Assembly: GCF_013376095.1 (NCBI RefSeq)
Contig: NZ_JAAMFN010000003.1
Span: 1-64,000, forward strand
From: Arthrobacter sp. SDTb3-6
GTDB lineage: Bacteria; Actinomycetota; Actinomycetes; Actinomycetales; Micrococcaceae
DNA: 64,000 bases
Reading direction: 5' to 3'
The first letter of the stretch is position 1. Each line of letters begins with the position of its first letter. Position numbers and translations under genes: made by a program. A model generated the notes under the pieces. That model was not told the origin of the DNA, ran no database searches, and saw only the letters and a program-made list of their open reading frames with translations. Shown one piece after another: positions 34,608-64,000 of this stretch.

Positions 34608-35056
34608 TTGAAGCGGCCCACCTTCTGCGCGGCCGAGGACTCCACCTCGGCGGCGGACAGCCGCGTTCCGGGGATGCCGCCCACCAGGGGAAGCTCCACA
34701 CGCAGGGTCACGTGCGCGCGCACCATGGTGCCCGGGGTGAGACAGCCGGCGTCACAGGAGATGGTGAGGGAGGCGTCGGCGGGGTCAAAGCCCATGTCGG
34801 TGACGGCCAGCGCCACCGCCGCTTCGGCGGCCTGCCGGGCGGCACCGGCGTCGGGCTGGAGGACAAACACCTTCGCGGCCTGGTCGGCGGCACCCACCAC
34901 AGCGTACGAACCGCCCTGCAGGGAACCCACGGTGAGGATCAGGTACGCCACCGGCACCATCAGCAGCACGGCCAGGAAGACGAACTCGACGACAGCGCTG
35001 CCCTGCTCCGCCGCTGCGCCCGTCGCGGACGGGCACTTATTTGTCGACGACGGCAT
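34604..35056 (-). CDS. tadE: TadE-family pseudopilin
   Basis: A 150-residue protein with the TadE helix EQGSAVVEFVFLAVLLMVPVA (about 18-45) after a short cytoplasmic stretch, and a C-terminal domain with two cysteines (SCDAGC) that could form a disulfide. It overlaps the preceding pseudopilin gene by 20 bp and the following one by 4 bp. Confidence 0.85.
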   Translation of the reverse strand: MPSSTNKCPSATGAAAEQGSAVVEFVFLAVLLMVPVAYLILTVGSLQGGSYAVVGAADQAAKVFVLQPDAGAARQAAEAAVALAVTDMGFDPADASLTISCDAGCLTPGTMVRAHVTLRVELPLVGGIPGTRLSAAEVESSAAQKVGRFK

Positions 35057-35438
35057 GGCCGCTCATTTCCAGTGTGCGTCCCGGCCCCCACAGTCCCATC
35101 AGCGGCAGCGGTGCCGTGACGGAAACCGTCAGGATGCGGACCCCGTTGGACGACGTCACGCCCGCGCTCACCTCACGGCTGTAGCCGTCGCCCAGGGCGG
35201 AACCGATCAGGAGGTCGGCGCGGTCCCGGGCATCCTGGGCGGTGCGGTCGGCGAGCGCGCCGTACCGTGCCGCGGACGATGCCGCATCGGCCACCGTGTT
35301 GCGCACATGCAGCACCAGTGCCAGCTGGAGCAGCGCCAGAAAAATGACTGTCACGATGGCGGAAACCAGCACAAAGTCGACCACCGCGGCACCGCGCTCC
35401 CCCGGGTGCCCGGTCGGCCCGGTCGGCCTGTGTGTCAG
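35037..35438 (-). CDS. TadE-like pseudopilin with probable CTG start
   Basis: About 133 residues. ERGAAVVDFVLVSAIVTVIF is a TadE-type membrane segment, and the rest matches the family (RNTVADAASSAARYG). The frame has no ATG, GTG or TTG upstream of the conserved ERG motif after the previous gene ends. A CTG at 35438 overlaps that gene's TGA stop (CTGA), the same geometry as the ATGA/GTGA couplings elsewhere in this operon. The first standard start is GTG at 35384, inside the conserved motif. The CTG start is inferred. Confidence 0.7.
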   Translation of the reverse strand: MTHRPTGPTGHPGERGAAVVDFVLVSAIVTVIFLALLQLALVLHVRNTVADAASSAARYGALADRTAQDARDRADLLIGSALGDGYSREVSAGVTSSNGVRILTVSVTAPLPLMGLWGPGRTLEMSGHAVVDK

Positions 35439-35698
35439 GGATGGACCTGGTCCATGGCTTCGTTGAACATCTTGGCCAAGGCCGGTCCGGCGATGGCGAG
35501 GAGCCCGGCGACGAGCACCGCCGACATCAAGGTGATCAGGACCCAGCCGGGAACGTCGCCGCGGGTCCTGCCGGCGGCCGGCCGGAGCCTGAAGTGCCGC
35601 GGCCCGGCCAGCCAGCCTGACAGCCAACGGGCCAGAAGGCGTTGCCCTGCCACCATGAGGGTGAGCGCTTGTCCGGCCAAAGGATGGATCTTTTCCAT
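35435..35698 (-). CDS. Flp-type pilin (DUF4244-like)
   Basis: An 87-residue small protein. A basic region is followed by RGDVPGWVLITLMSAVLVAG and a helix ending ALAKMFNEAMDQV, in the place where Flp/DUF4244 pilins carry their processing site (GDVPGWV) and hydrophobic helix. It is probably the main pilin. The ATG at 35698 has AGGGGA upstream. No prepilin peptidase gene is in the window. Confidence 0.75.
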   Translation of the reverse strand: MEKIHPLAGQALTLMVAGQRLLARWLSGWLAGPRHFRLRPAAGRTRGDVPGWVLITLMSAVLVAGLLAIAGPALAKMFNEAMDQVHP

Positions 35699-35857
35699 GG
35701 TGAGTCCCCTCGTTCTTGATTTCCCCATGCGGGTTTTCGTGCCGTATGTGTTCAAACCGGGTTTGTTCCTCATGTGCCGGTCCGTCGCAGCCCCGTCCGC
35801 CCCGCTCGCGCGGACGGACCGTGCGCGGCGGGTGCTGTGGCGGCTGGCCGGCAGGCA

Positions 35858-36796
35858 TCAGAAGCCGAACTGCAACAGGGCCAGGCCGGGAAAGACGGCA
35901 AAGATGACAGTCAGCGGAAGCACGCCGAAGACCAGGGGAACCATCATGGCAATTTCCTTGCGCCCGGCGGCTTCCATGAGTTCGCGCTTGGCCACGTCGC
36001 GCACGTCCTGGGCCTGGGAGCGCAGCACATCGGCCAGGGGCGTGCCCCGGTTGACCGCCACGCTGATGCCGTCGACAAAGCGGGCCAGGGCGGGGATGGC
36101 CAGTCGGTCGGAAAAGCTGCCCAGCGCCTCCACCAACGGCGTCCCCGCCCGGGTTTGGGCCACGATCCGGGAAAACTCGCCGGATAGCTCCCCGTGGGAC
36201 TGCCGGGCCACCCGGTCCAGGGCGCTGCCGGCACTTTCGCCGGCGCCCACGGCCAGGGCCATGAGTTCGGCCAGGGCGGGAAATTCCGCCATGATCAGGG
36301 CCTGCCGGCGCTTGATCCGTGCTCCGAGCAGGTAGTCGCAGCCCAGGTAGCCGCCCAGCATGAGCACGCCGGTCAGCGCCAGCCCGCCCATGGCGTTGGT
36401 GCGGCCCTGCCACACGAGGGCCAGCGAGAGGGCCAGTCCGGCGACCATGCCCGCACCCGTCCACAGCAGCTGGACGGCACGGAACTCCAGCGGCGATTCG
36501 CTCCGTCCTGCGCGTTCCAGCCGTGCGGCCAGGCCCTTGACACTGATGTTGAAACGGCCCAGCCGGGTGACGGCGTCGGAAACCATCAGGCGCAGGATCC
36601 TTTCCAGCGGGCCGAAGAGCGCGCCGGCGTCCTCCTGGATGAGCAGTCCCGAGCGGCTGGCAACGCTGCGCAGCTGCGGTTCCACACGTTCGGCAAAAGT
36701 GGGGCGGCGCATGGCGGGCAGGCGGACAAACACCAGCCACAGGCCAAGGCCCAGGCCCACCCCGGCCGCCAGGGTTGCCGCGGCATGGCCGTTCAT
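35858..36796 (-). CDS. tadC: Type II secretion system F family protein TadC
   Basis: A 312-residue inner-membrane platform protein. The T2SSF domain occupies about residues 165-290 (ALIMAEFPALAELMALAVGAGES, then RGTPLADVLRSQAQDVRD) with helices before and after. It partners TadB at the base of the Flp pilus. It overlaps tadB by 4 bp. Confidence 0.88.
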   Translation of the reverse strand: MNGHAAATLAAGVGLGLGLWLVFVRLPAMRRPTFAERVEPQLRSVASRSGLLIQEDAGALFGPLERILRLMVSDAVTRLGRFNISVKGLAARLERAGRSESPLEFRAVQLLWTGAGMVAGLALSLALVWQGRTNAMGGLALTGVLMLGGYLGCDYLLGARIKRRQALIMAEFPALAELMALAVGAGESAGSALDRVARQSHGELSGEFSRIVAQTRAGTPLVEALGSFSDRLAIPALARFVDGISVAVNRGTPLADVLRSQAQDVRDVAKRELMEAAGRKEIAMMVPLVFGVLPLTVIFAVFPGLALLQFGF

Positions 36797-37647
36797 TGCA
36801 GCACCCGCCGTTCCCCCGGCAGCTTTCCAATCCGCAACATGAGGCGGTAGCAGACCACCGAGACCAGCAGCCCGCCGCCCAACACCAGCCAGCCGGCGGC
36901 GGAATTGTAGGCGGCGATGGCCTCGGGCCGGGTGGCCATGAGCACCAGCACGATCCAGGGCGCGGCGACGGCGAGCCGGGCGGCGTTGACCGTCCAGGAC
37001 TGGCGCGCTTCCAGCTCGCTGCGGGTGCGGGCATGGTCGCGGAGGAATTCCGACAAGGTGCCCAGGAGCCGCCCCAGGTCGGTGCCGCCCACATCGCGGG
37101 TCAGGCGCAGCGCCTCCATGATACGGTCCGCGACGGGGTCCGCCAGCCGGTCCTTGAGTCTTTCCAGTGCCGCCTCGAACTGGCCGGAGGAACGGTAGTC
37201 GGCCCCAAATCCGGCAAACTCGCCACGCAGTTCCATGGGGCCCTTGCTGCCCAGCTGGATAAGGGCCTCGGGCAAGGGCAGCCCCGCCCGGATGGCCGAG
37301 CGCAGGTGGTCCACGACGTCGGGCCAGAGTTCACGCAGGACGGCCGAGCGGCGTCGTGCCCGCCAACGCAGCAGGGCCAGGGGGACATAGCCGGCAAACA
37401 GGCCCAGGCACAAGGCGATGGGCGCCGCCCCGGTCACGACCATCACCAGCAGCGCGGCCAGGACGGCGAACCCCAGGGTGCTGGCGATCAGCGACGCCGG
37501 GGTCACCTGGGCCACGCCTGCCTGTTGAAGCAGGTCCTCGAGCCTGCTGTGCCGCGCCGGCCGGGCGGCCTGTTCGGGCGTGTCCCAACAGGCCGTCCAG
37601 ACAAGGAACAGTCCCAGCCCGGCCAGCAGTCCCACGAGCGCGGACAT
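36793..37647 (-). CDS. tadB: Type II secretion system F family protein TadB
   Basis: A 284-residue membrane protein with N-terminal helices, a T2SSF domain (ELWPDVVDHLRSAIRAGLPLPEALIQLG) and two C-terminal helices. The length and position between the ATPase and TadC identify it as TadB. The ATG abuts the stop of the ATPase gene. Confidence 0.88.
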   Translation of the reverse strand: MSALVGLLAGLGLFLVWTACWDTPEQAARPARHSRLEDLLQQAGVAQVTPASLIASTLGFAVLAALLVMVVTGAAPIALCLGLFAGYVPLALLRWRARRRSAVLRELWPDVVDHLRSAIRAGLPLPEALIQLGSKGPMELRGEFAGFGADYRSSGQFEAALERLKDRLADPVADRIMEALRLTRDVGGTDLGRLLGTLSEFLRDHARTRSELEARQSWTVNAARLAVAAPWIVLVLMATRPEAIAAYNSAAGWLVLGGGLLVSVVCYRLMLRIGKLPGERRVLQ

Positions 37648-38870
37648 CAGGATTCCGCCATCAGGGCGGCCACGCTGTACCCGGCGGCGGCGAACTTTTC
37701 CGGCGACGGCATGGCGGAGGCGGAGGGTGTGAGGCGTCCGTCGACGGTGTCGAACGCCATGCCGGACTCGATGACGCCGTTTTCCACGCGGCGGCCCAGG
37801 GAGAGGATCTGGCCAACCCGCCGTTTGCCGTTGGGCAGCCTGACGCAGTGCACCACCAGGTCAATGCAGGCAGCCACGGTGGGCACCACGAAGGCGGCAC
37901 TGATGTTTTCCCCGGCCAGCAGGGGCAGCGTGCAAATCTTGACGACGGCGTCGTGGGCCGAGTTCGCATGGACGCTGGCCATGCCGGGCAGCCCGCTATT
38001 CAAGGCAATCAACATGTCCAGGCTTTCGGCTTCGCGGACCTCGCCCACGATGAGCCGTTCTGGGCGCATGCGCAGGGCCTCCTTGACCAGTCGCCGCAGC
38101 GGGATTTCGCCCACGCCTTCCAGGTTCGGCTGGCGGCACTGCAGTCCCACCACGTCACGCAGTGGCAGCTTCAGCTCGAAAATCTCCTCAACCGTCACCA
38201 CTCGCTCACGGGAACCGATGCCGGCCGCGAGGCAGTTGAGCAGCGTGGTCTTGCCGGCCTGCGTGGCACCGGACACCAGGATGTTCAGGCCGCTGCTGAC
38301 GGCGGCGCCCAGGAAGCGGGCCGCCTGCGGCGTCAGCGAGCCAAGCTCCACCAGGTGCTCGAGGCGGCTGGCGCGGGCGGTGAACTTGCGGATGTTCACG
38401 GCCCAGTGCCGCGCCGTGATGTCCGGGATGACAACATGCAGCCGGGACCCGTCCGGCAGGGCGGCGTCAACGAAGGGGCTGCTCAGGTCCAGCCGGCGGC
38501 CCGAACTTTTCAACATGCGCTCGACGAGGTCGCGCACCTGCTGCTGGGTGAACGCCAGCGGGGTCAGCTCGGATTCGCCGTTGCGGGCCACGAAAACCTC
38601 ATCCGGGGCGTTGAGCCAGATTTCCTCAATGTCGGGATCGTCCAGGAAGGGCTGCAGGGCGCCAAAGCCGGCGACGGCGTCGTACACATGCTGCATGGCG
38701 TCACCGGCGTGGGCCAGCGGCGGCACGGCACCCACCAGGGACCGCTCCCCATAGTCATTGACCGCCGCTTCCACCAGCGTGCGGACCTCGCTGCCCTGGC
38801 GCAAGGGGTCAAGGCCCTTCCGACGGATGAGTTCCCGAACCTCATCCTCCACCAAAGCAAGTGCATCCAT
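37647..38870 (-). CDS. tadA: Pilus assembly ATPase TadA/CpaF
   Basis: A 407-residue secretion ATPase. Walker A is SGATQAGKTTLLN near residue 200, followed by the Asp box (VTVEEIFELKL), the His-containing ARRMRPERLIVGEVR-like block (here LRMRPERLIVGEVRE) and the N-terminal CpaF domain. It powers Flp pilus assembly. The ATG at 38870 has GGAGA 6 nt upstream and is preferred over a longer frame. It is the first gene of the operon tadA-tadB-tadC-flp-tadE-tadE-tadG. TadZ, RcpA/C and a prepilin peptidase are not encoded here. Confidence 0.92.
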   Translation of the reverse strand: MDALALVEDEVRELIRRKGLDPLRQGSEVRTLVEAAVNDYGERSLVGAVPPLAHAGDAMQHVYDAVAGFGALQPFLDDPDIEEIWLNAPDEVFVARNGESELTPLAFTQQQVRDLVERMLKSSGRRLDLSSPFVDAALPDGSRLHVVIPDITARHWAVNIRKFTARASRLEHLVELGSLTPQAARFLGAAVSSGLNILVSGATQAGKTTLLNCLAAGIGSRERVVTVEEIFELKLPLRDVVGLQCRQPNLEGVGEIPLRRLVKEALRMRPERLIVGEVREAESLDMLIALNSGLPGMASVHANSAHDAVVKICTLPLLAGENISAAFVVPTVAACIDLVVHCVRLPNGKRRVGQILSLGRRVENGVIESGMAFDTVDGRLTPSASAMPSPEKFAAAGYSVAALMAES

Positions 38871-39050
38871 AGTGCGTCTCCGCCCCCGCGGTCCGGCTAT
38901 TTTCCCCTTGTCAGTGGAGCCTAGCCCGGCACATGGAGAACGCGCTAGAGGCATTTGCGCACCTGTGGACAATGGCGGGCGGCAACGGCCGGGCCATTTT
39001 CACTGGAATTCCCCAGCAAACGGCCACGGAACGGACATTATTCTTGTGAC

Positions 39051-44625: not shown

Positions 44626-44858
44626 TGCCTGCAACACGTAACAGGAACCCGCTGCGCTGAAACGGGCATGTCCTTGCCCTGTGCGGCGACAGCTTCGCAG
44701 CAGCGTACAACATTTGTAACATAAGAAACATTGTTCACTCCAGTATCACCGGAGTACTCTATGTAGCAAGTTGCTCTGGGGGCGTACTTCAGGCACAAGC
44801 CTGCGCTTCGCCGTCTTCAGGCCACAATTTGTTGACCCATCGAACCGGAGAAGATTCC

Positions 44859-47800
44859 ATGTTTTCACCTAGGAACCGGCTGGCGCGTTTTTCGACCCGA
44901 GCACTGTTGCTTGGCGCCGCCAAGGTTGCGGGTACCGGGCTGATTGCCGTCTCCGTTGCCATTACGATGGGAACATTGCCTGCCACGGCCGCCCCGTCGG
45001 ATCCAGTTCCTGCAGCTTCTTCCACCGCGTCGCCCACGGCAACAGCTCCGGGTACAGACCCGGCTTCAGTTGCTACTGCGCCTGCAACTCCCCAGCCGTC
45101 GCCGAGCGCCAGCCCAACACCAAGTCCTGCCTCGACGCCAGGGTCCTCCCCTTCGGCAGCCGAAATGGCGAAGTACGGCGCATACATGGGGATAGGTCTC
45201 GTCAAAGAGGGGGCCGGCCAGCAACAATCGCACAGTGGAACAGGAACAAAATCATCCCTCTCGGCCTCGGTTGCCCAACCACTTTCCTCCGTTTCACCGG
45301 GCGGGGTGCTGGGCATGGACGTCAGCGGCTGGCAGACCTCCGACGCGGCGCACTCCATAAGTGACGTCAACTGGACTGATCAATGGAGAATGGGAGCGCG
45401 GTTTGTCTACATAAAGGCTACGGAGGGGACCTCTTTCCGCGACGCCTCGTTTTCCTCCCAGTACGTGGGTGCCTCCAGCGTGGGCATGTTGCGCGGAGGC
45501 TACCATTTTGCCCGCCCTGACCAGTCCGACGGTGCCACGCAGGCCGACTTCTTCACCAGCAACGGGGGTGGTTGGAGTGCGGACGGCAAAACCATGCCCC
45601 CACTTCTGGACATTGAAAACAACCCATATGGAGCTGAATGCTACGGCCTGAGCGCGTCGCAGATAGTTTCGTGGATCAGCGCGTTTTCCAAGGAGGTCCA
45701 GGCGCGCACAGGTCGATTGCCCATGATCTACACCAACTACTACTGGTGGCAGGACTGTACGGGAAACTCGGCCGCGTTCACCAACCAGCCGCTCCACATT
45801 GCCGCCTATGGCACATCCAGTCCCTGGATTCCGGGGGGCTGGCCAAACTACAGCGTATGGCAGTACAGCTCCAGTGGTCCTTTTGCCGGCGATTCAAACA
45901 CGTGGAACGGGACGCAAACCAGTCTGAATACTTTTGCCACCAATGCTGATTCCCCTGCACCGCCGCCCGCGTCTCCGCTAGTCAACCCGTCCATTGTCTC
46001 CACTGCGGATATGGTTGCCGCCGACAGCACCGGCGCGCTTTGGGACTACCCCTCCAACGGAGCAGGCGGGTTGGAACCACGAAAGCAAATCGGCCAGGGC
46101 TGGACAGGCATGCGTTCCATCACCGTCATCGATTGGAATTCCGACGGCGTCTTGGATCTGCTTGCCCAAAAGACCACGGGCTCGTTATCGGTCTACCCTG
46201 GTTTGCCAGGTGGAGGATTCGGCGCCCCCCAAACGTTGGCCTCCTCCGGCTGGGGCGGCTACCAGCTGACGGTGGGCTACTGGCTCAATTCTGCCCCATA
46301 CCCACAAATACTGACGCGCTCCGACTCGGGCGTCCTCACGCTGTGGAAAAACCCGTCCGGTGGCGGAATTGACGCCGGAACACAGATCGGCCAGGGCTGG
46401 AACTCGCTTAACCTGACGATGGTCGATTTCGACGGGGACGGCAACCAGGACTTGCTGGCCCAGGACACTACGGGTACGGTCCGGCTATACCGTTCCAACG
46501 GGGCTGGCGGCTTCATGGCCGAGACCCGAAAGACGGTTGCCACTGGCTGGAATGCCTTCACGAGCGTCACGGTGTACAGCGGTTTCGCTTTTCCCGGTTC
46601 CACCGGCTTGATCCAGAGGAATACGTCCGGCGGGATTCGTTACGTGCCTGTTCCCGGCAATTCGAGCTTCGGTACGCCATCAGCGCTCGGTAGCGGATGG
46701 AATCCGTATCTGATTGCCGGCGGCGAAAACATCAACACCAGCCTCCCCGCCACACCTGACCCGTCCATCAAGTCCGTCTCGGATGTTGTGACGGTGGATG
46801 CTGCCGGGAACCTCTGGCGCTACCCCGTCGCGAATGCCGGGCTCGGCGCGGGCACACAGATCGGATACGGGTTCACCGGCATCAAATCGATACACGTGAC
46901 CGACTGGAATGCTGACGGCACCCTGGACCTGCTTGTCCAGCGCACGGACGGCCGGCTGCTGCTGTATCCTGGTGCATCCGGAGGGGGATTTACCGGGGTC
47001 CTCACCCTTGCCGGTTCCGGCTGGGCCGGCTATGACATGACCGTGGGCCAATGGATCCGCGGAGGAAGGTTCCCTTCGATTGTCGCGCAGGCCGCCAACG
47101 GATCGCTCACATCGTTCACCACCACCAACGGAACATCCCTGAGCGCCGGAACCGCAGTTGCTCAAGGCATGACCCGGATGCACCCCGTCATGACCGACTT
47201 CGACGGCGACGGCAACGCCGACATCGTGGCTGTCGACAACATCGGCCGCCTGATACTCTACAGGTCAAACGGTGCGGGGCAGCTCATTGCGGAGACACGC
47301 CCCGTTATTGGGACAGGGTGGAACGGCATGACCAGCGTTGGCCCCGCCAATGGATTCACGTCATCGGGATCGACAGGACTGCTGGCCAAGACCGGCAGCG
47401 GGAACATGATGTACTACCCGACGTCCTCTTCCCACTTTGGTGCGGCATCAACCATCGCCACCGGATGGGGAGCAAACGCTGTTGCCGGAAGCCAGGCGCT
47501 GGCGGGCCAACAAGCCCTCACCAGCCCGAACGACGTCATTTCTGCCGATGCCAACGGCATACTTTGGAATTCCGCAGCGACCGGAACTGGGCAACTTCAG
47601 CCACCATACCCAATCGGTAGGGGCTGGACGGGCCTGAAAAGCCTGCATGTGATCGATTGGAACCAGGACGGCATCCCGGACATCCTGGCCCAGTGGTCCT
47701 CAGGCACCATGACCGTCTATGCGGGTACCACAGGCCCGGGCTTTGCAGCCCCCATCACGGTGGGCACCGCAGGATGGGGCAATATCCGCATAACGACAGG

Positions 47801-48248
47801 GAAATGGGTGTCGGGCGCGCCGTATCCGGGGGTCCTCGGAATCAATGCCGCGGGCCAAATGTTCTATTGGGCCAACCAATCGGGAGGTACGCTTTCGGCC
47901 GGAAACCAAATCGGGACCGGCTGGGGGCCGCTGCGCATCATCATGGTCGACTTCGATTTGGATAGTCGAGCGGACCTGCTCGCCGTTGACGGGCAGGGCC
48001 TCATGCGCCTGTACCGTTCCAACGGAAGCGGCAACTTTGTGGCTGAGACCCGCCCGGTGGTGGGTTCCGGCTGGGCTGCCTTCCAGCAGTTTTCCGGAGT
48101 AACCGGCTTCACCGGCCCCGGCAGCACCGGAGTTCTCGCGGATTCCTCGGACGGATCCGTGCGGTACTACCCCATTACGGCACCACGCAGTTGGGGCGCG
48201 CCAAGCATCCTGGAACAGACGGTCTCAGGGACAACGATCAGTTATTAG
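44859..48248 (+). CDS. Secreted GH25 muramidase with three FG-GAP-like modules
   Basis: A 1129-residue exported protein. A signal peptide (about 1-45) is followed by a Pro/Ala/Thr/Ser linker to about 130 and a GH25 lysozyme domain (about 145-365). The catalytic acids are probably in GMDVSGWQ and PPLLDIENN. Three long homologous modules follow (about 379-640, 641-890 and 891-1125), each with two calcium-type loops such as DWNSDGVLD and DFDGDGNQD and recurring WTGMRSI, GWNS and RLYRSNGAG. GGAGAAG precedes the ATG at 44859. The enzyme should cut peptidoglycan; the modules probably bind wall glycans. The upstream 230 bp has an AT-rich stretch (44706-44740) likely to hold the promoter. Confidence 0.92.
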   Translation: MFSPRNRLARFSTRALLLGAAKVAGTGLIAVSVAITMGTLPATAAPSDPVPAASSTASPTATAPGTDPASVATAPATPQPSPSASPTPSPASTPGSSPSAAEMAKYGAYMGIGLVKEGAGQQQSHSGTGTKSSLSASVAQPLSSVSPGGVLGMDVSGWQTSDAAHSISDVNWTDQWRMGARFVYIKATEGTSFRDASFSSQYVGASSVGMLRGGYHFARPDQSDGATQADFFTSNGGGWSADGKTMPPLLDIENNPYGAECYGLSASQIVSWISAFSKEVQARTGRLPMIYTNYYWWQDCTGNSAAFTNQPLHIAAYGTSSPWIPGGWPNYSVWQYSSSGPFAGDSNTWNGTQTSLNTFATNADSPAPPPASPLVNPSIVSTADMVAADSTGALWDYPSNGAGGLEPRKQIGQGWTGMRSITVIDWNSDGVLDLLAQKTTGSLSVYPGLPGGGFGAPQTLASSGWGGYQLTVGYWLNSAPYPQILTRSDSGVLTLWKNPSGGGIDAGTQIGQGWNSLNLTMVDFDGDGNQDLLAQDTTGTVRLYRSNGAGGFMAETRKTVATGWNAFTSVTVYSGFAFPGSTGLIQRNTSGGIRYVPVPGNSSFGTPSALGSGWNPYLIAGGENINTSLPATPDPSIKSVSDVVTVDAAGNLWRYPVANAGLGAGTQIGYGFTGIKSIHVTDWNADGTLDLLVQRTDGRLLLYPGASGGGFTGVLTLAGSGWAGYDMTVGQWIRGGRFPSIVAQAANGSLTSFTTTNGTSLSAGTAVAQGMTRMHPVMTDFDGDGNADIVAVDNIGRLILYRSNGAGQLIAETRPVIGTGWNGMTSVGPANGFTSSGSTGLLAKTGSGNMMYYPTSSSHFGAASTIATGWGANAVAGSQALAGQQALTSPNDVISADANGILWNSAATGTGQLQPPYPIGRGWTGLKSLHVIDWNQDGIPDILAQWSSGTMTVYAGTTGPGFAAPITVGTAGWGNIRITTGKWVSGAPYPGVLGINAAGQMFYWANQSGGTLSAGNQIGTGWGPLRIIMVDFDLDSRADLLAVDGQGLMRLYRSNGSGNFVAETRPVVGSGWAAFQQFSGVTGFTGPGSTGVLADSSDGSVRYYPITAPRSWGAPSILEQTVSGTTISY

Positions 48249-52203: not shown

Positions 52204-53543
52204 TGTTTGCTCCTCTCCGAGGGTTGCGCAGGCTGCCCGGCCCGTTCGTCAAGTTCCGAGCGGAGTTCGGCGATTGCCGGTCGGAGCGTGGCGGACCGTT
52301 CAAACTGCTGCCCGAATTCCCATGCCGCTTCCCACTTGGCCGGGTCGGGTGCGGCGAGTTCCTTGGCGCAGGCTAGCAGCGCAGCTGCGATGCCTTCTGG
52401 TGTCAGGTCCCTGGCCTCAAACCAAAGCGGGTAGTTGCGAAGAATTGTCGACGCGGCGCTGTCTGCTGCGTGGACAGACACAATGGGCAGGCCCGTTGCA
52501 ATGTACTCCGCCGTTTTTCCGCCCGTCACATACTTTCCCGGAGGGAGTATTAGCAACAGCGCATCAACTCCTTGATAGAATGTGGCAACATCGCGCTTGG
52601 AGATGGGGCCTTCGTAGGCAAGGCCCCGGTGCATGCCGGAATTGAAAATTTCCAGGACGTTTGCCGGAACCAGTCCGGTAGGGCTCAGCTTTCCGCGGAA
52701 GACTGCATGCGCCATCTGCGCATCGTCCTTGCCGAAGGCCGCGTCCCATCCCGCCAGGAACTCGGCCAAGGGAACGGCTGTGTATTGAAGGGTGCCAAGG
52801 TAGCCAATACGTGGTTCCATGGTTTTTCTGGCCTCAGGACGGCGGTGACCCGGTTGGGGGTCAAATCCGTTCGGCACCACGCGCATGCTACGGATCGTGT
52901 CGGGATACCTGCGCGCGTATTCGTCGAGTATGGGCTGGTTCACAAACCACGTACGCAGCGCCCCTTTCAGATAGCCATGTTCAAGCCTGCCCCGCTCCGA
53001 TACGGTCGCGAAAATCTCAGCACCGGTGAACGTACTGAATGACCAGGCGTCCCGGTAGTCCAGGACATAGGGAACATCAGGCAGCTCACGCGCTATTTTG
53101 TACGAAACATAGGGCGCCGCAGAGGCCATGACCAGGTCAACGGGGTGCTCCCGGTGAATTTGGTGCACGGCCTGGCTGGCGGGGCCAAACCAGGACGCGT
53201 GAAAGTCCTCGGGAAACCCCTTGTTGCTGCGCCGACGAAAAAGTTCCTTCCAGATATAGGGTGCCTCAATCCGGAGCCTCGAATAACGCCGAAGGTCACG
53301 CCGGTTCGGTTCCTCCGAACCGCCGTCGGATACGTGGACCACGTTGATCGTGGGGTCGATGGCATCCAGCAGCCGTCTGTCTGCTCCGGTCACCTCGGCC
53401 CAGATGTCCGCGTCAACAGTGAGGACCGTAACATCCCAGCCAGCTTCTGCGAAGCCGTTTGCCACTGCCGTGCAACGGTATACCGAGGAAGCCGAGCTGG
53501 GCGGAAAGGCAAACGAAATATAAAGAAGATGGGGCCGGTTCAC
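52200..53543 (-). CDS. Glycosyltransferase, GT-B type
   Basis: A 447-residue protein. The N-terminal LYISFAFPPSSASSVYRCTAVANGFAE is a family 4-type acceptor-domain start, DYRDAWSF is typical of sugar transferases of this group, and GGKTAEYIATGLPIVSVH is the donor-domain E-loop. It overlaps the neighbouring genes by 4 bp on each side. Donor and acceptor unknown. Confidence 0.85.
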   Translation of the reverse strand: MNRPHLLYISFAFPPSSASSVYRCTAVANGFAEAGWDVTVLTVDADIWAEVTGADRRLLDAIDPTINVVHVSDGGSEEPNRRDLRRYSRLRIEAPYIWKELFRRRSNKGFPEDFHASWFGPASQAVHQIHREHPVDLVMASAAPYVSYKIARELPDVPYVLDYRDAWSFSTFTGAEIFATVSERGRLEHGYLKGALRTWFVNQPILDEYARRYPDTIRSMRVVPNGFDPQPGHRRPEARKTMEPRIGYLGTLQYTAVPLAEFLAGWDAAFGKDDAQMAHAVFRGKLSPTGLVPANVLEIFNSGMHRGLAYEGPISKRDVATFYQGVDALLLILPPGKYVTGGKTAEYIATGLPIVSVHAADSAASTILRNYPLWFEARDLTPEGIAAALLACAKELAAPDPAKWEAAWEFGQQFERSATLRPAIAELRSELDERAGQPAQPSERSKQ

Positions 53544-54514
53544 TTTGCCGTCTCCAACACTTTCTTGTAGCCGGCTTCGAGCCGTGGCAGCAGGGCCGCC
53601 GGGCCGTGGTTCTTGATGATGTAATTCACACTGTCGAGCCTGCAGGAGAGCGCAGGCGGGTCGGCCAGCGATTCACGCACGGCCGTGCCCACATCGACGC
53701 GAGCCACGGAAACCGTGGCAACGTCCGCCGGATACCCGGCATGCTGGTCGGCAAAGATCGTGGGAATGCCCATGCCCATGGCCTCCAACTCACTTGTGGC
53801 CAATATCCCAGCGATCTGTCCCACGGCAATGTGTGCGTGTGACATTTCCCGAAGGAAATCTGCCTTGGGCATCTTCGGCAGAAGTTCCACGCCCATTGCA
53901 CCGACCTCCGCCGCACGGTCGCCCCAGTCCAGTCCGACGATGTCAACATCCATTCCGGCCAGGGCAGCCACAACGTCGGCGGCGGTCTGCACCCAGGCGT
54001 CGCCGCCCTTCGATGCGTCCCAGCGCGACGGGAAGAACACCCGGGGCCTGTCGGCCGGAGACCATTTGGGAAGCTCGGCGAGGTCTATCGGAATGGGCAT
54101 GTATTCAGCATCGGACCGGGCACGCTCTGCTTTTTCTCGATTGTCCGGTGTGGCATACCAGACATGCCCGGCGCCATCCACGTCAGCCCGGATCGCCGCA
54201 TGGTGCTGCTCTTGCCAGTAGTTTTCCCGAATGTCAGTGCCGTGCAGGGTCAGTGCATATGGCCGTGCAAACCTGCCACGAGCCCATTTTGCCCTTCCGC
54301 CCATGTTGACATGCCACAGTTGCGTACGCGGGTATGCCGAGGCCTGTTCCAGGAGGAACCGGTAGTAGGCAGCTTTAGTGCCCCCGCGGGTCCACGGTCC
54401 CTGAATGATCTTCCAGGGCTTACCTTGTCGTTGTCCCTCCGTGACAAAGGTTTTGCCAACATCGGCGCAGTCGAAGAGTTGCGTGACCCGGATTTCCTTG
54501 TTCATGCCATACAT
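53540..54514 (-). CDS. Glycosyltransferase
   Basis: A 324-residue protein of GT-B type. TLHGTDIRENYW, VFFPSRWDASKGGDAW and ATSELEAMGMGIPTIFADQHAG mark the donor domain. It is the first gene of the operon running to 48278. Two starts are possible, MYGM at 54514 or ATG at 54505; neither has a clear RBS. A longer upstream frame overlaps the divergent ABC transporter and is not credible. Confidence 0.82.
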   Translation of the reverse strand: MYGMNKEIRVTQLFDCADVGKTFVTEGQRQGKPWKIIQGPWTRGGTKAAYYRFLLEQASAYPRTQLWHVNMGGRAKWARGRFARPYALTLHGTDIRENYWQEQHHAAIRADVDGAGHVWYATPDNREKAERARSDAEYMPIPIDLAELPKWSPADRPRVFFPSRWDASKGGDAWVQTAADVVAALAGMDVDIVGLDWGDRAAEVGAMGVELLPKMPKADFLREMSHAHIAVGQIAGILATSELEAMGMGIPTIFADQHAGYPADVATVSVARVDVGTAVRESLADPPALSCRLDSVNYIIKNHGPAALLPRLEAGYKKVLETAK

Positions 54515-54670
54515 TCTCGCATTGAACCCGCTCCCACCGGTGTCAGGCAACGCGCCCGCTGGGCCTGGGTCGCGAACTTCATCGGTCCGCGAAAGCGCAC
54601 GGGCAAGGCGCTCTTCAGGCAACCCCCGTAGTATAGGAAGGATTCTTCCACTGCAGTTCTGGAGTAAAAC

Positions 54671-56494
54671 TTGAAAAACCTGCGACGCACTCTTGGCCAA
54701 CTGCTGCCGCTTCTGCCGGCCAACGCGAGAAAATTCCTGTATCTGTTCGCGTCGTTGTCTTCGGTACTGGTCCTCGTTGACGCAGGGGCCTTGGGCGTTT
54801 TTGCCTTGGTGCTGAACCAAATCATGCAATCCCAAAGTTCCGGCCACCCAATGATGCTGCCGATTCTCGGAAGCATCTCAGACAATGTCGGCCTCTTGAT
54901 TCTGGTGTGCTCGGCGGCACTGATGATCATCAAGTCGTTCCTGAACATCTGGCTGCAGTGGGTCTCAACCCGTAAGTTCGCCGATTACGAGTTGGAGATC
55001 GGCACGGTCCTCTTCCAGAGCTACATCCGTGCCCCCTGGACGTCGCGCCAAAACAGGTCGACCACCGAACTAGTGCGCATGATCGATGTGGGCATAGCCA
55101 ACACCATCGCCGGCGTGCTGTTTCCTGCGGTTGTCTTGCCGTCCCAGGCGTTGACGTTCGCATCCGTGCTGGTCATCCTTGTTGCTGCTTCATGGCAGAC
55201 GGCGCTTATTACGGTCCTTTACCTGGGTCTTATTGCGGGTTTCCTGTATCTGTATTTGTCGAAAAAGTCCTACGAGGCGGGTAGGGTAAACCGCGATTCG
55301 GCCATGCGGATGTCAACACTGGTCTCGGAGATGCTGGCGGCACTAAAGGAAATCACGCTCCAGGACAAGGCCGACGAAGTCGGCGCAGTCGTCCTCTTGA
55401 GCCGCGAAAAGGCCGCAAGGTCCAGATCCAACATTCGTTTCCTGGCTGCTGTGCCGAAATTCGTCATTGACATGGCACTCATCGGGGGCTTCCTTCTCAT
55501 TGGAACCGTTGGGTACTTCAACGGCGGCATCGCCGCCGCCATGACCTCGGTGGCGATTTTCGCTCTCGCCGGCTTCAAAATGGTCCCGGCTCTTACCACC
55601 ATCCAGTCGCAGGTGACACTGGTGCAGTCGACGCTTCCCTACACGGAACTTGTCATGGCCGATATTCGGGACGCCGAGGACTTCCGCAACAATGCCGAAA
55701 AACTGGGCAGGACCCCCCTCGGCGGGGAACCGAAAATCCTTGAGTTGCGCAACGTCGAATTTACCTACCCTGGCGCCACCAGCCCCGCAGTAACCGATGT
55801 CAACCTGCGAATCCCGCTCGGAACATCGGTCGGTGTGGTCGGACAGTCCGGCGCCGGCAAGTCGACATTGATTGACATCTTCCTGGGCCTGCTGGTGCCC
55901 TCGAGCGGCACCATGACGCTCGATGACGTTCCCCTTGAAGAGGTCCTGGCAGCCTGGCGAAAGCGTGTGGGTTACGTACCCCAGGAAGTCGCAATTTTCG
56001 ACGGCACCGTGGCCCAGAATGTTGCCCTCTCATGGGGTGGCGACGTCGACGAGGACCGAGTGCGCCTTTCATTGCGGCGCGCCCAATTACTTGAAACCAT
56101 AGAGGCGCGCCCCAACGGCATTCATGGGCGGGTTGGCGAGCGCGGCGGCTCACTCTCCGGCGGCCAGCGTCAGCGCCTCGGTATCGCCAGGGCGCTCTAC
56201 ATGGACCCGCTTGTGCTTGTGTTGGATGAGGCCACCAGCGCCCTCGACACCGCCACGGAGGCTGCGGTGGCCGCGGCCATCCATGAACTGCAAGGCGATG
56301 TCACTGTTATTTCAGTGGCCCACCGGCTGTCCACCATCCGCGACAACGCGCAGGTTCTTTACATGAGCGGGGGCACGATTGAGGCCAGGGGGACTTTTGA
56401 TGAAGTCGTTGCCGCAAACCCAAATTTCGCACGGCAGGCCGCTTTGGCGGGATTGACTCCCCTGGAGCCGGTGACCGAACCTGGTATGAAGTGA
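54671..56494 (+). CDS. ABC transporter, fused permease and ATPase (glycan flippase type)
   Basis: A 607-residue half-transporter. Six helices occupy about residues 20-320 and are followed by an ATPase with Walker A GQSGAGKST, signature LSGGQRQRLGIARAL and Walker B LVLVLDEATSALD. Its size and place among glycosyltransferases resemble PglK/MsbA-like lipid-linked oligosaccharide flippases. TTG start with GGAG upstream. It is divergent from the GT operon and convergent with the next glycosyltransferase gene. Confidence 0.9.
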   Translation: MKNLRRTLGQLLPLLPANARKFLYLFASLSSVLVLVDAGALGVFALVLNQIMQSQSSGHPMMLPILGSISDNVGLLILVCSAALMIIKSFLNIWLQWVSTRKFADYELEIGTVLFQSYIRAPWTSRQNRSTTELVRMIDVGIANTIAGVLFPAVVLPSQALTFASVLVILVAASWQTALITVLYLGLIAGFLYLYLSKKSYEAGRVNRDSAMRMSTLVSEMLAALKEITLQDKADEVGAVVLLSREKAARSRSNIRFLAAVPKFVIDMALIGGFLLIGTVGYFNGGIAAAMTSVAIFALAGFKMVPALTTIQSQVTLVQSTLPYTELVMADIRDAEDFRNNAEKLGRTPLGGEPKILELRNVEFTYPGATSPAVTDVNLRIPLGTSVGVVGQSGAGKSTLIDIFLGLLVPSSGTMTLDDVPLEEVLAAWRKRVGYVPQEVAIFDGTVAQNVALSWGGDVDEDRVRLSLRRAQLLETIEARPNGIHGRVGERGGSLSGGQRQRLGIARALYMDPLVLVLDEATSALDTATEAAVAAAIHELQGDVTVISVAHRLSTIRDNAQVLYMSGGTIEARGTFDEVVAANPNFARQAALAGLTPLEPVTEPGMK

Positions 56495-60135: not shown

Positions 60136-61272
60136 ATGAGCCAGTGCATTGAAGTGGTCATACCGGTGCATGAGACGGCCCGGCCACTGGAAAGGGGGCT
60201 GGAATCCGTCCTGGCCCAGCGGTCCGAACTTGCCGCCCTCGGTGTGAAAATCGCGGCCACTGTGGTCTGCCACAACATCGCCACCGAGGCCATCAAGGGC
60301 AGCCTCACCCCTTCCCTGGCTTCGGACGACGCCGTCACCTGGCTGGGGCACAATGACGGCACCCGGTCCCCCGCAGGGCCGCGCAACGCGGCCTTGGACC
60401 GCAGTGCCGCCACCTACATGAGCTTCCTGGATTCCGACGACTATCTTGAACCCGGTTCCCTCGGGGCTTGGTGGAAGGTGGCCGAGGCCTTGGACGCCGC
60501 AGCCGTCATTGCCCCTCTTCGGACACCGGAGGGCACGATCCTCCGTTCCCCGCGCATCCGTCCGTCAAAACCGGCCGTGCTGGACGCGGTCAAGGACGGG
60601 CTCGCCTACCGTAGCGTGCCCTACGGACTTCTGCGCCGTTCCGCTTTGCTCGCGTGCGGTTTCCGCTACGCTGAGGGCATTACGATCGGTGAGGACCTGG
60701 AAGCCGCCCTAAAGCTCTGGTTCCGGGGTGGCCGGATCGTTTATCCGTATTCCACGCCCGCGTACCACCAAACCGACGCATCGGGCACCACCAGGGTTAC
60801 GAGCGCCATCCGCCCGCTCGCGGAGGAATTCCTGTGGCTTGACGCCCTGGTCCAGGCCCCGTGGATACTGTCCGCTTCGGTTGTCGAACGCCGGACCATC
60901 GCCCTGAAACTGTTCCGCATCCACGGCATTGGTGCGCTGCTGCGCCGCGGCTCCCCGCAATTCAGTTCCGGAGCGCCAGTTTGGTCAGAAGATGATCGTG
61001 CGGCCTGGGCCCAAGCCCGCTCGCACCTCCTCCGCTTGGCCGGCGGCGCCCTGCCGGCACTGTCGCGCCGCGATGCAGCCCTTGGCCGTGCCGCCGCCGA
61101 AGCCGGGGACGACGAGCAGTTGCGTGCCGCCGTCGTCCGATACGCTCGCGCCGGCAGGCTGGGGGAAATGGCAACGGACCGGCCGGCGGCCATGTTTTCA
61201 GCGGACTCCGTGCTCAGGCACTACGCTGCCGAGAGGCTACGAACGCGGTCCGGAGTGTTCGCCCTCGGTTAG
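60136..61272 (+). CDS. Glycosyltransferase family 2
   Basis: A 378-residue GT-A enzyme, paralogous to the divergent neighbour at 58971-60080. Motifs are EVVIPVHETARPLERG, SPAGPRNAAL, SFLDSDDYLEPG and GITIGEDLEAALKLWF. A GGGAGGG stretch precedes the ATG, so unlike its partner it has a leader. It ends 9 nt before wecB. Confidence 0.87.
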   Translation: MSQCIEVVIPVHETARPLERGLESVLAQRSELAALGVKIAATVVCHNIATEAIKGSLTPSLASDDAVTWLGHNDGTRSPAGPRNAALDRSAATYMSFLDSDDYLEPGSLGAWWKVAEALDAAAVIAPLRTPEGTILRSPRIRPSKPAVLDAVKDGLAYRSVPYGLLRRSALLACGFRYAEGITIGEDLEAALKLWFRGGRIVYPYSTPAYHQTDASGTTRVTSAIRPLAEEFLWLDALVQAPWILSASVVERRTIALKLFRIHGIGALLRRGSPQFSSGAPVWSEDDRAAWAQARSHLLRLAGGALPALSRRDAALGRAAAEAGDDEQLRAAVVRYARAGRLGEMATDRPAAMFSADSVLRHYAAERLRTRSGVFALG

Positions 61273-62443: not shown

Positions 62444-63487
62444 TTATGCATCATGGTCCGCATGCAGAAGGTCAGCCTGCCGCGAAAACTCATCGTCACC
62501 TGTCATCCCGGCCATCGTGCGAAGCTGGCTGATGACGCCTTTATGATAGTTTGCCGGGTTGTCCCAAACTGTCCTGCCGTAGTAGGTCGGCGAATACCAG
62601 CTGGGTTTTCCCGGATTTCTATAGGCACCAAACGAGTCGCGAATACTGGATGCCCCAACATCGAACAGCCATTTGACGTGTCTGTCACCGGATATCCGGT
62701 AGTAATCATAAAGTCCGTACAACGCATAAATATGGCCGTTGACCACGTGGGCGTTCTGTTCGTCGGCAAGGGCGGGATATTCCTCATAGTAGAGAAACTT
62801 TTTGCCGTCCAGCAGCTTGACGTTTTGGAACCATGGACCGGCCTCCACCTTCGGCTGGTCATATGACTTGACAGTCGATGCCGCCATCTTCTTCCAGTGC
62901 TTGTCGCCGGTAGTCTCGTACAAGTTGACGAAAACCGACGTCATCATGCCTTGGGCCATGCCTGAATACCATGGCGTTCCAAGGCGCAGCGTCCTGACAT
63001 CATGTGCAAAGCGGTACGGAAACCAAAGTGCCCCTTTGTCGTCAGTCACAGACCACTTGACCAAATAATTGGCAGTGGAGACTGCCCGGTCCAAATACTG
63101 TGGATTCTTGGATTCCTGGTACGAGGACAGCATCTGGCTGATGTACCAGGCTGAATTCACCGGGTGGTAGACGGCTTGCCCGTGCAGTTTTGTGACCAGG
63201 ACGTTGTTTTCGTTGGTCTCGCCCCACCTGGTGTCCTCCAGTGGCACCACGAACCTGCCGATGTAGGGTGACGTCCCATCGCGGCTTAATTCGAAGCCTG
63301 AATGGTTGAATTTTGGGCCCCAAATGGCGTCCCTCAAGGAAAAAAGACCACCGGAAACTGCCAGAACCACCACCATGGCCACAATTCCGAGGGCAATGCG
63401 CCGACGGCGAATGATGCGGCGCCGCCTGAGCCTTCGGAATTGGGCATTGGACGCCACGGCAGTGGTCGCCGGCGTTTGAATTGTCAT
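62444..63487 (-). CDS. D-glucuronyl C5-epimerase-like membrane-anchored protein
   Basis: A 347-residue protein. A very basic N-terminus (RRLRRRRIIRRRR) and one membrane helix (about 31-50) are followed by an extracytoplasmic domain. The C-terminal half matches the heparan-sulfate glucuronyl C5-epimerase C-terminal pattern: EYPALADEQNAHVVNGHIYALYGLYDYYR and ALWFPYRFAHD, with conserved Tyr and Glu. In animals this fold turns D-glucuronate into L-iduronate in the polymer. Here it could epimerise uronate of a surface glycan outside the membrane. No sulfotransferase or UDP-glucose dehydrogenase is in the window. It starts 2 nt after the upstream glycosyltransferase stop, so they are cotranscribed. 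Confidence 0.8.
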   Translation of the reverse strand: MTIQTPATTAVASNAQFRRLRRRRIIRRRRIALGIVAMVVVLAVSGGLFSLRDAIWGPKFNHSGFELSRDGTSPYIGRFVVPLEDTRWGETNENNVLVTKLHGQAVYHPVNSAWYISQMLSSYQESKNPQYLDRAVSTANYLVKWSVTDDKGALWFPYRFAHDVRTLRLGTPWYSGMAQGMMTSVFVNLYETTGDKHWKKMAASTVKSYDQPKVEAGPWFQNVKLLDGKKFLYYEEYPALADEQNAHVVNGHIYALYGLYDYYRISGDRHVKWLFDVGASSIRDSFGAYRNPGKPSWYSPTYYGRTVWDNPANYHKGVISQLRTMAGMTGDDEFSRQADLLHADHDA

Positions 63488-63488
63488 T

Positions 63489-64000
63489 TCACATTCCCAA
63501 TTTCAGTACGGCCTGGGCGGCAACCCGCCCCGATGCCGCCAGTGACGCGTTCTGAAGGACCCACCGGACCCTGGCATCCGCCGACGGCGAGCCAGCCACG
63601 ACAGCCTCGTGCAAGACGGCCGACATGGCCTGGGCAACCGCCTGGACGTCGTAGGCGGCAGCCGCGCCGAGCCGGCCGGACTCGACGACGGCGGCGCCGT
63701 CGCCCTGCCCCGCGAACACCACAGGGGTGCCGCAGGCGGCGGCAGCATAGATCTTCGTGGGCTTGGCAAAGTCGTAGCCCTGGCCCGGCTTGATGCTGAC
63801 CAATGCCGCGGCGGCGCCCCGAATCCAGGCGGCGGCATCGGCCGGCGGCACGACCCCGCCAAAGTGGACCGCACCCGGGATGGCCTGGGCGGCCACGGCC
63901 TTGAGGTGCCCTTCATCCGCGCCCTGGCCGAAGAACCGCAGCTCCACGTCCGGGAACTTTTCGCGGACCAGGGCCAATGCCTCGATGAAAATGGCCGCGC
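63489..64000 (-). CDS. Glycosyltransferase family 4, C-terminal part (runs off the window)
   Basis: The last 170 residues of a GT-B enzyme whose start lies beyond the right edge. IEALALVREKFPDVELRFFGQG, VPPADAAAWIRGAAAALV and FAKPTKIYAAAACGTPVVFAG show the donor domain. It is the upstream partner of the C5-epimerase gene. Confidence 0.85.
   Translation of the reverse strand, partial: AAIFIEALALVREKFPDVELRFFGQGADEGHLKAVAAQAIPGAVHFGGVVPPADAAAWIRGAAAALVSIKPGQGYDFAKPTKIYAAAACGTPVVFAGQGDGAAVVESGRLGAAAAYDVQAVAQAMSAVLHEAVVAGSPSADARVRWVLQNASLAASGRVAAQAVLKLGM

What the first reader, a model, noticed from the sequence alone, without database searches (positions are those of the whole stretch)
62444..64000. 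Glucuronyl C5-epimerase-like protein coupled to a glycosyltransferase in a bacterial surface-glycan locus
The membrane-anchored protein carries the C-terminal pattern of heparan-sulfate D-glucuronyl C5-epimerases (NGHIYALYGLYDYYR and nearby residues), starts 2 nt after a glycosyltransferase stop, and sits in a 25-kb glycan region with galE, wecB and an ABC exporter. If active it would make L-iduronate-type residues in an actinobacterial glycan, after polymerisation and outside the cell. The fold is known; the bacterial pathway, donor chain and product are not evident from the sequence.
Basis: partly seen in the sequence, partly recalled or inferred. Interest (0 to 1): 0.72.

Follow-up and report, generated by a model that had tools for sequence, protein, structure and literature searches.

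The report
Heparan-type epimerase for diacetamido-uronate glycan
An Arthrobacter-like actinobacterium carries a relative of the animal heparan-sulfate C5-epimerase inside the operon for an unusual diacetamido sugar acid, which suggests that these bacteria use this enzyme family to flip that sugar on their cell-surface polymer rather than to make heparan-style iduronate.

Summary
The gene is real: 62444-63487(-) matches Pfam C5-epim_C (1.6e-29), keeps all five catalytic residues of human GLCE, and its model (pLDDT 92) finds eight GLCE chains first. Beyond the window edge the same strand carries four enzymes for UDP-ManNAc3NAcA, then a glycosyltransferase and this gene; the convergent "wecB" best matches a UDP-GlcNAc3NAcA 2-epimerase and has its diagnostic Trp. 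Elsewhere, 13 of 14 strong-hit genomes of an order sample have that 2-epimerase against 68 of 283 others, and 10 of 11 in a class sample against 28 of 285. Of 50 actinobacterial genomes chosen for a C5 homologue, 47 have it and 45 the 3-dehydrogenase. UDP-glucose dehydrogenase shows no association: 8 of 14 against 185 of 283. Pathway genes lie within 10 kb in 15 of 80 homologous loci. Best reading: a membrane-anchored enzyme that, after export, epimerises diacetamido-mannuronate to L-guluronate-type residues. A GlcA epimerase or a lyase is not excluded. I know of no biochemistry on it.

The parts
62444..63487 (-). C5-epimerase-like protein, 347 aa, N-terminal membrane anchor plus alpha-helical catalytic domain
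   Evidence: Pfam C5-epim_C 1.6e-29; GLCE chains by sequence and by fold; five GLCE catalytic residues kept as E236, Y237, N250, Y298, Y314
63489..64000 (-). 3' part of the GT4 glycosyltransferase (388 aa; runs to C68:64655 outside the window), stop 1 nt before the epimerase start
   Evidence: Pfam Glyco_trans_4_4 / Glyco_trans_1_4; junction read; same order in L036 and L037
61282..62346 (+).
   Evidence: best solved match 8sxv 345.6 bits against 272 (4neq) and 129.5 (1f6d); Trp299 = T. thermophilus Trp307. NCBIfam's name for it is wecB
60136..61272 (+). GT2-type glycosyltransferase upstream of the 2-epimerase
   Evidence: Pfam Glycos_transf_2 2.1e-7

Best explanation
A type II membrane-anchored member of the C5-epim_C (GLCE-like) family acts on the outer face of the membrane on an exported wall or surface glycan. 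It removes and returns the C5 proton of a polymer-bound 2,3-diacetamido-2,3-dideoxy-D-mannuronate residue, giving 2,3-diacetamido-2,3-dideoxy-L-guluronate. The donor UDP-ManNAc3NAcA comes from the same operon (6-dehydrogenase, 3-dehydrogenase, 3-aminotransferase, 3-N-acetyltransferase) plus the convergent 2-epimerase. Shown by sequence: family, predicted fold, catalytic residues, operon, and association with the pathway in the genomes sampled. Inferred: substrate, product, polymer level, location, and that the reaction is epimerisation and not elimination.
For: Pfam, PDB sequence and Foldseek point to GLCE, with an AlphaFold model of mean pLDDT 92.4. E236/Y237/N250/Y298/Y314 align with human E499/Y500/N510/Y560/Y578 (alignment; residue list from PMC13308652 section 6); N250, Y298 and Y314 are invariant and E236 and Y237 at least 90% conserved in 64 sequences. 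Operon gene classes. The 2-epimerase has the Trp that replaces the arginine of UDP-GlcNAc enzymes. At least one pathway gene within 10 kb in 15 of 80 homologous loci, two or more in 14 of 80. All five pathway genes plus a 30%-identical C5 homologue in one 20-kb stretch in two other actinobacterial families (2 of 8 stretches). 2-epimerase in 13 of 14 strong-hit genomes against 68 of 283 others and in 10 of 11 against 28 of 285 in the class sample; by genus, with the looser cut-offs, 8 of 9 against 31 of 85 (p 0.003) and 6 of 7 against 15 of 108 (p 1e-4). 47 of 50 and 45 of 50 C5-positive actinobacterial genomes have the 2-epimerase and the 3-dehydrogenase. Control: a UDP-glucose-dehydrogenase-type protein of this genome (best solved match 4a7p, 339 bits) is found in 8 of 14 against 185 of 283, p 0.57.
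Against: No biochemistry was available. 65 of 80 homologous loci show no pathway gene within 10 kb (some are cut short by contig ends); so do 9 of 13 C5-centred stretches and 6 of 8. The Arthrobacter sister group L038-L040 keeps the pathway elsewhere in the genome, so co-occurrence is often not linkage. Three of 50 C5-positive genomes lack the 2-epimerase match (G747, G765, G788) and five lack the 3-dehydrogenase match. Pathway-linked proteins are not one clade: 11 changes on the tree. NCBIfam calls the 2-epimerase wecB, above that model's cut-off, and one of three specificity positions (Ala18) is Leu16 here, as in UDP-GlcNAc enzymes. The genome has two UDP-glucose-dehydrogenase-type genes. 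Weak C5 hits not counted as positive in the 2x2 tables: 8 of 11 (order) and 1 of 4 (class) have the 2-epimerase. Related genomes are not independent and the samples overlap.
Confidence: 0.52

Rival explanations
1. A true glucuronyl C5-epimerase: it turns polymer-bound GlcA into L-IdoA, as the first reader proposed and as animal GLCE and the Bermanella enzyme do.
For: All five GLCE catalytic residues kept; best fold matches are GLCE chains, some with heparin-type ligands; the only tested bacterial relative acted on desulfated HS/heparin (passages in PMC4432689, section 3 of PMC13308652); two UDP-glucose-dehydrogenase-type genes in the genome.
Against: The only UDP-sugar dehydrogenase in the operon is of the UDP-HexNAc type; no association of the family with UDP-glucose dehydrogenase (8 of 14 against 185 of 283); tight association with the ManNAc3NAcA pathway.
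Confidence: 0.15
2. It acts on D-GlcNAc3NAcA residues (the pathway's intermediate) and makes L-IdoNAc3NAcA.
For: UDP-GlcNAc3NAcA is the substrate of the 2-epimerase (PMC10622841 passages), and Streptomyces griseus has a GlcNAc3NAcA residue at the reducing end of its polymer (PMC13274773 passages); gluco-configured uronate is GLCE's natural configuration.
Against: The C5 homologues co-occur with the 2-epimerase that converts this intermediate. In G345 the C5 gene is truncated and no 2-epimerase is found in that 20-kb stretch, though this may be a single event.
Confidence: 0.12
3. It is a polysaccharide lyase or chain-trimming enzyme of the diacetamido-uronate polymer: same C5 proton abstraction, followed by beta-elimination.
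For: The double-tyrosine arrangement of GLCE is also found in heparinase II and an alginate lyase (PMC8006597 passage); many homologues sit in longer open frames (secretion and extra domains not tested).
Against: Closest by sequence and fold is GLCE, including E499/N510 equivalents; a biosynthetic operon with the gene directly after a glycosyltransferase.
Confidence: 0.15

Closest known systems
Animal heparan-sulfate D-glucuronyl C5-epimerase GLCE (PDB 4pw2/4pxq, 6hzz/6i01)
   Same: Alpha-helical catalytic domain, five catalytic residues; type II topology (inferred here, recalled for GLCE)
   Different: 347 aa with one N-terminal helix and the catalytic domain only; operon points to a diacetamido-uronate; no sulfotransferase among the neighbours scanned with Pfam
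Bermanella marisrubri RED65_08024 (Raedts 2013, known here only through PMC4432689 and PMC13308652)
   Same: Bacterial GLCE-like enzyme
   Different: Assayed on desulfated HS/heparin, native glycan unknown; its sequence was not compared here
P. aeruginosa Wbp / T. thermophilus UDP-ManNAc3NAcA pathway (PMC10622841)
   Same: All five enzyme classes are present beside the epimerase
   Different: The passages read mention no C5-epimerase step
Streptomyces utr teichuronic acid clusters (PMC13274773)
   Same: Actinobacterial wall polymer with ManNAc3NAcA, proposed to be made by the same pathway
   Different: The reported repeat is ManNAc3NAcA-GalNAc; the epimerases named in the passages read are a 2- and a 4-epimerase
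H. salinarum Agl32 (PMC13308652)
   Same: Prokaryotic uronyl C5-epimerase for a surface glycan
   Different: Lacks the GLCE catalytic residues; acts on a lipid-linked glycan before it crosses the membrane
Alginate epimerases AlgG/AlgE
   Same: Reaction type: D-manno to L-gulo at polymer level
   Different: Unrelated fold (beta-helix, recalled); none among the 50 Foldseek matches listed

Membership tests
C5-epim_C (GLCE-like) family | Pfam PF06662 above gathering score | tested here: met
   103.2 bits against 23.3, 1.6e-29
C5-epim_C (GLCE-like) family | Catalytic Glu/Tyr/Asn/Tyr/Tyr (human E499, Y500, N510, Y560, Y578) | tested here: met
   E236, Y237, N250, Y298, Y314 (alignment; conservation; residue list from PMC13308652)
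C5-epim_C (GLCE-like) family | Alpha-helical catalytic domain of GLCE | tested here: met
   Model pLDDT 92.4; top eight Foldseek matches all GLCE, E 1.5e-9 to 1.6e-8
Animal-type GLCE | N-terminal beta-hairpin dimerisation domain and beta-sandwich | tested here: not met
   347 aa, one long N-terminal helix, a few short strands, then the catalytic domain. Filed therefore in the C5-epim_C family, not as a GLCE orthologue
Animal-type GLCE | GlcA-containing substrate, IdoA product | not testable with these tools
   No assay; context argues for another uronate
UDP-ManNAc3NAcA (Wbp) pathway | Five enzyme classes present together | tested here: met
   6-dehydrogenase, hexapeptide acetyltransferase, DegT aminotransferase, GFO/IDH 3-dehydrogenase and 2-epimerase; activities not tested
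UDP-GlcNAc3NAcA 2-epimerase (WbpI type) | Trp in place of the Arg of UDP-GlcNAc 2-epimerases | tested here: met
   Trp299; Trp in all 16 rows at 60% identity or more apart from the query's own locus (15 different places); Arg in L112 (46%), L115 (34%) and L056 (30%); Trp in L105, L054, L078
UDP-GlcNAc3NAcA 2-epimerase (WbpI type) | Ala18 and Tyr96 of the T. thermophilus enzyme | tested here: inconclusive
   Tyr kept (Tyr92, alignment); Ala18 is Leu16 here
WecB (UDP-GlcNAc 2-epimerase) | NCBIfam equivalog TIGR00236 above cut-off | tested here: met
   271.8 bits against 210.15; the model does not settle the substrate, and the Arg of UDP-GlcNAc enzymes is replaced by Trp
AlgE/AlgG alginate epimerases | Parallel beta-helix fold (recalled) | tested here: not met
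   Model is alpha-helical; the 50 listed matches start with GLCE and continue with AGE, GH76 and GH127 proteins
Polysaccharide lyases with double-Tyr site | Beta-elimination product | not testable with these tools
   Shares the first chemical step; needs an assay

The most novel reading that the evidence does not exclude
The actinobacterial branch of the heparan-epimerase family does not serve iduronate. It is a polymer-level C5-epimerase of 2,3-diacetamido-mannuronate that makes L-GulNAc3NAcA on wall teichuronic-type polymers, a third epimerisable uronate beside GlcA and alginate's ManA. The module is gained and lost separately from the pathway and changes the surface epitope that phages and lectin-bearing toxins see.
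Probability: 0.42. Interest if true: 0.76.

Novelty: new variant of a known kind. Interest (0 to 1): 0.6.

Why it matters
The one tested bacterial GLCE homologue has no known native substrate (PMC4432689 passage: its target remains unknown). The tie to the ManNAc3NAcA pathway gives a concrete, testable substrate for the actinobacterial branch. It could name an enzyme class for the C5 inversion that PMC3901696 proposed for GulNAcA (passages) and that gulo-configured diacetamido-uronates (PMC3210612 passage) would need. It also warns against taking the family name 'D-glucuronyl C5-epimerase' literally in actinobacteria.

Tried and rejected
Alginate-type epimerase and AGE-type 2-epimerase were considered and rejected on fold and catalytic residues. 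AGE, GH76 and GH127 proteins appear only as weaker fold or Pfam matches. A UDP-glucose-dehydrogenase control first used the wrong ORFs; it was corrected, run on the order sample, and the query's identity was checked (4a7p, 339 bits; nearest NCBIfam equivalogs are UDP-glucose dehydrogenases, below their cut-offs). The claim that C5-positive genomes lack GlcA synthesis was tested and dropped: six of 14 have no match, but three of those six (G683, G503, G529) have a shorter dehydrogenase closer to UGD1 than to the operon enzyme. Of the rest, G541 and G516 (drafts) show only the operon-type enzyme (G516 also a short unclassified match); G326 has one enzyme, 34% identical to the operon type, and no 2-epimerase match. 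Single origin of the linked proteins is not supported by the tree. The paper search (2,418 papers, 25 listed) gave nothing used. Substrate docking was not attempted.

Full report
OBSERVATION. The ORF at 62444-63487(-) is 347 aa from an ATG. It matches Pfam C5-epim_C at 1.6e-29, 103 bits against a cut-off of 23.3, and is the only such match in the genome at E up to 0.001. phmmer finds zebrafish and human GLCE in the PDB (8.9e-10, 3.2e-8). It begins 1 nt after the stop of a GT4 glycosyltransferase. An Arg-rich N-terminus and one hydrophobic stretch from about residue 31 suggest a type II anchor with the enzyme outside (inference).

ACTIVE SITE AND FOLD. In the alignment printed, human chain position plus 90 gives the human numbering; E499, Y500, N510, Y560 and Y578, the GLCE catalytic residues listed in PMC13308652 (section 6), all fall on the right letters. 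All five are kept here: E236, Y237, N250, Y298, Y314. In 64 aligned sequences N250, Y298 and Y314 are invariant and E236 and Y237 at least 90% conserved. AlphaFold on that alignment gives mean pLDDT 92.4, pTM 0.83. Foldseek's first eight PDB matches are all GLCE chains, E 1.5e-9 to 1.6e-8, rmsd 2.6-2.8 A over 221-222 columns, 23-24% identity. The model has one long N-terminal helix and the catalytic domain; GLCE's beta-hairpin and beta-sandwich domains are not there.

THE OPERON BEYOND THE WINDOW. The window is C68:1-64000 of a 185-kb contig. Going upstream on the same strand from the epimerase (contig coordinates): GT4 63489-64655, GFO/IDH/MocA 64655-65647, DegT aminotransferase 65651-66742, hexapeptide acetyltransferase 66739-67353, UDP-sugar dehydrogenase 67381-68670, acyltransferase with SGNH domain, ABC ATPase and permease, GlfT2-like transferase, UDP-galactopyranose mutase to 75777. 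The oxidoreductase is nearest NCBIfam's UDP-GlcNAc 3-dehydrogenase (3e-64, 217 bits, below its cut-off of 450). The acetyltransferase is nearest 3mqg, an LPS-biosynthesis acetyltransferase (a WlbB structure by recall). The dehydrogenase is nearest UDP-ManNAc dehydrogenases (below their NCBIfam cut-offs). The aminotransferase is DegT-type, best solved match 7b0d, with WbpE among the matches at 191 bits, so its step is assigned by context. With a 2-epimerase these are the five steps of UDP-ManNAc3NAcA synthesis (WbpA, B, E, D, I; passages of PMC10622841).

THE 2-EPIMERASE. Against solved structures it scores 345.6 bits with the T. thermophilus UDP-GlcNAc3NAcA 2-epimerase, 272 with 4neq and 129.5 with 1f6d, both named UDP-GlcNAc 2-epimerases. 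PMC10622841 (passages) names three changes that fit the bulkier substrate: Arg to Trp307, Leu/Met to Ala18, His/Gln to Tyr96. Here Trp299 and Tyr92 agree; Leu16 does not. The Trp is in all 16 other rows at 60% identity or more (15 different places; L118 is L036 again). Of the six less similar rows, L105, L054 and L078 have Trp, and L112, L115 and L056 have Arg.

CONSERVED LINKAGE. A genome-contig scan found 156 relatives and kept the best 80 loci. 15 of 80 hold at least one pathway gene at 55% identity or more within 10 kb, 14 of 80 two or more; some stretches are shortened by contig ends. Two Arthrobacter records (L036, L037) keep the order 6-dehydrogenase, acetyltransferase, aminotransferase, 3-dehydrogenase, GT4, C5-epimerase, convergent 2-epimerase; in L037 no ABC permease or GlfT2 match was found in its 20.9 kb. 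Of 13 further C5-centred stretches fetched by place, 4 hold pathway genes (L118, which is L036's place; L119, with a truncated C5 gene; L120; L121) and 9 do not. Of eight around class-sample hits, 2 (L155, L156; other families; C5 homologue 30% identical) hold matches to all five pathway genes, the aminotransferase of L156 cut by the end of the stretch, and 6 hold none. On a 79-row tree the linked proteins need 11 changes, at least 8 forced by well-supported branches, so linkage is repeated or repeatedly lost, not one inheritance.

CO-OCCURRENCE. Order sample of 297 genomes: 25 match the C5 model. Of 14 with E below 1e-30, 13 have the 2-epimerase at 57% identity or more, against 68 of the other 283 (p 2e-7). 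The 11 weak hits, counted among the 283, have it in 8 of 11. Class sample of 296: 10 of 11 strong hits (E below 1e-15) against 28 of 285 (p 4e-9); the 4 weak hits, 1 of 4. By genus, with the cut-offs of the searches themselves, 8 of 9 against 31 of 85 (p 0.003) and 6 of 7 against 15 of 108 (p 1e-4). The strong-hit limits were set after seeing the lists. In 50 genomes chosen for a C5 homologue (50 of the 80 loci, Actinomycetota by record title), 47 have the 2-epimerase (E up to 1e-60; 45 of them at 57% or more over most of its length) and 45 the 3-dehydrogenase. The three sets overlap and related genomes are not independent. Control: a UDP-glucose-dehydrogenase-type protein of this genome is found in 8 of 14 C5-positive against 185 of 283 other genomes of the order sample, p 0.57.

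AGAINST. Most homologues examined are not within 10 kb of the pathway (65 of 80). G747, G765 and G788 lack the 2-epimerase match. This genome has two UDP-glucose-dehydrogenase-type genes. The double-Tyr site also occurs in lyases (PMC8006597 passage). Nothing here measures activity.

MECHANISM. Most likely the operon makes UDP-ManNAc3NAcA, the glycosyltransferases build it into a chain, an ABC exporter carries the chain out, and the anchored enzyme inverts C5, turning D-manno into L-gulo units. Streptomyces griseus walls contain a ManNAc3NAcA-GalNAc teichuronic-type polymer for which such a pathway is proposed (PMC13274773 passages), and C5 inversion of ManNAcA to L-GulNAcA was proposed, without naming an enzyme in the passages read, for Vibrio VPS (PMC3901696). 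2,3-Diacetamido-hexuronate of gulo configuration is reported in marine Gram-negatives (PMC3210612 passage).

A MOVABLE MODULE. The C5 gene is 54.6% GC against 65-68% for the five genes before it. L036 and L037 show the same (0.54 against 0.61 and 0.60 for the locus), but it is not general: L155's C5 part is richer in GC than its locus. In G345, same genus, the C5 match covers residues 16-118 only, beside ORFs that look like transposases by eye, and no 2-epimerase match is found in that 20-kb stretch. This fits a decoration gained and lost on top of the pathway (inference).

IN PRINT? Searches for C5-epimer with diacetamido (3 papers; one opened in passages and not on this topic, two seen only in the listing), for GulNAc3NAcA/ManNAc3NAcA with C5-epim and others (21 papers, none listed with both), and for bacterial glucuronyl C5-epimerases (25 of 54 and 20 of 54 listed) showed no paper proposing this link. 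The library is partial; Raedts 2011 and 2013 are not held.

Noticed in passing
62444-63487: The epimerase gene is about 54.6% GC in a 65.9% GC window, with the five genes before it in the operon at 65-68%, which suggests recent arrival or exchange.
   Followed up: partly
L119 (G345:C102), 11430-11879 and 6101-8367: A relative keeps four pathway genes, but its C5 gene is truncated next to ORFs that look like transposases by eye, and no 2-epimerase match is found in that 20-kb stretch.
   Followed up: partly
44829-48248: Large open frame with a GH25 domain and FG-GAP repeats beside the glycan region.
   Followed up: no
35037-38972 (-): Tad-type pilus or secretion genes (T2SSE, T2SSF, TadE matches).
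   Followed up: no
53540-54847 (-): 435-aa frame in the glycan region with no Pfam match at 0.001 and only a weak, partial NCBIfam match to a teichuronic-acid transferase.
   Followed up: no
L105 near 220, L054 near 5221, L112 near 6402: C5-epimerase homologues in Chloroflexota and Latescibacterota MAG contigs lie near 45-51% identical 2-epimerases, so the link may reach beyond actinobacteria; L112's has Arg in place of Trp.
   Followed up: no
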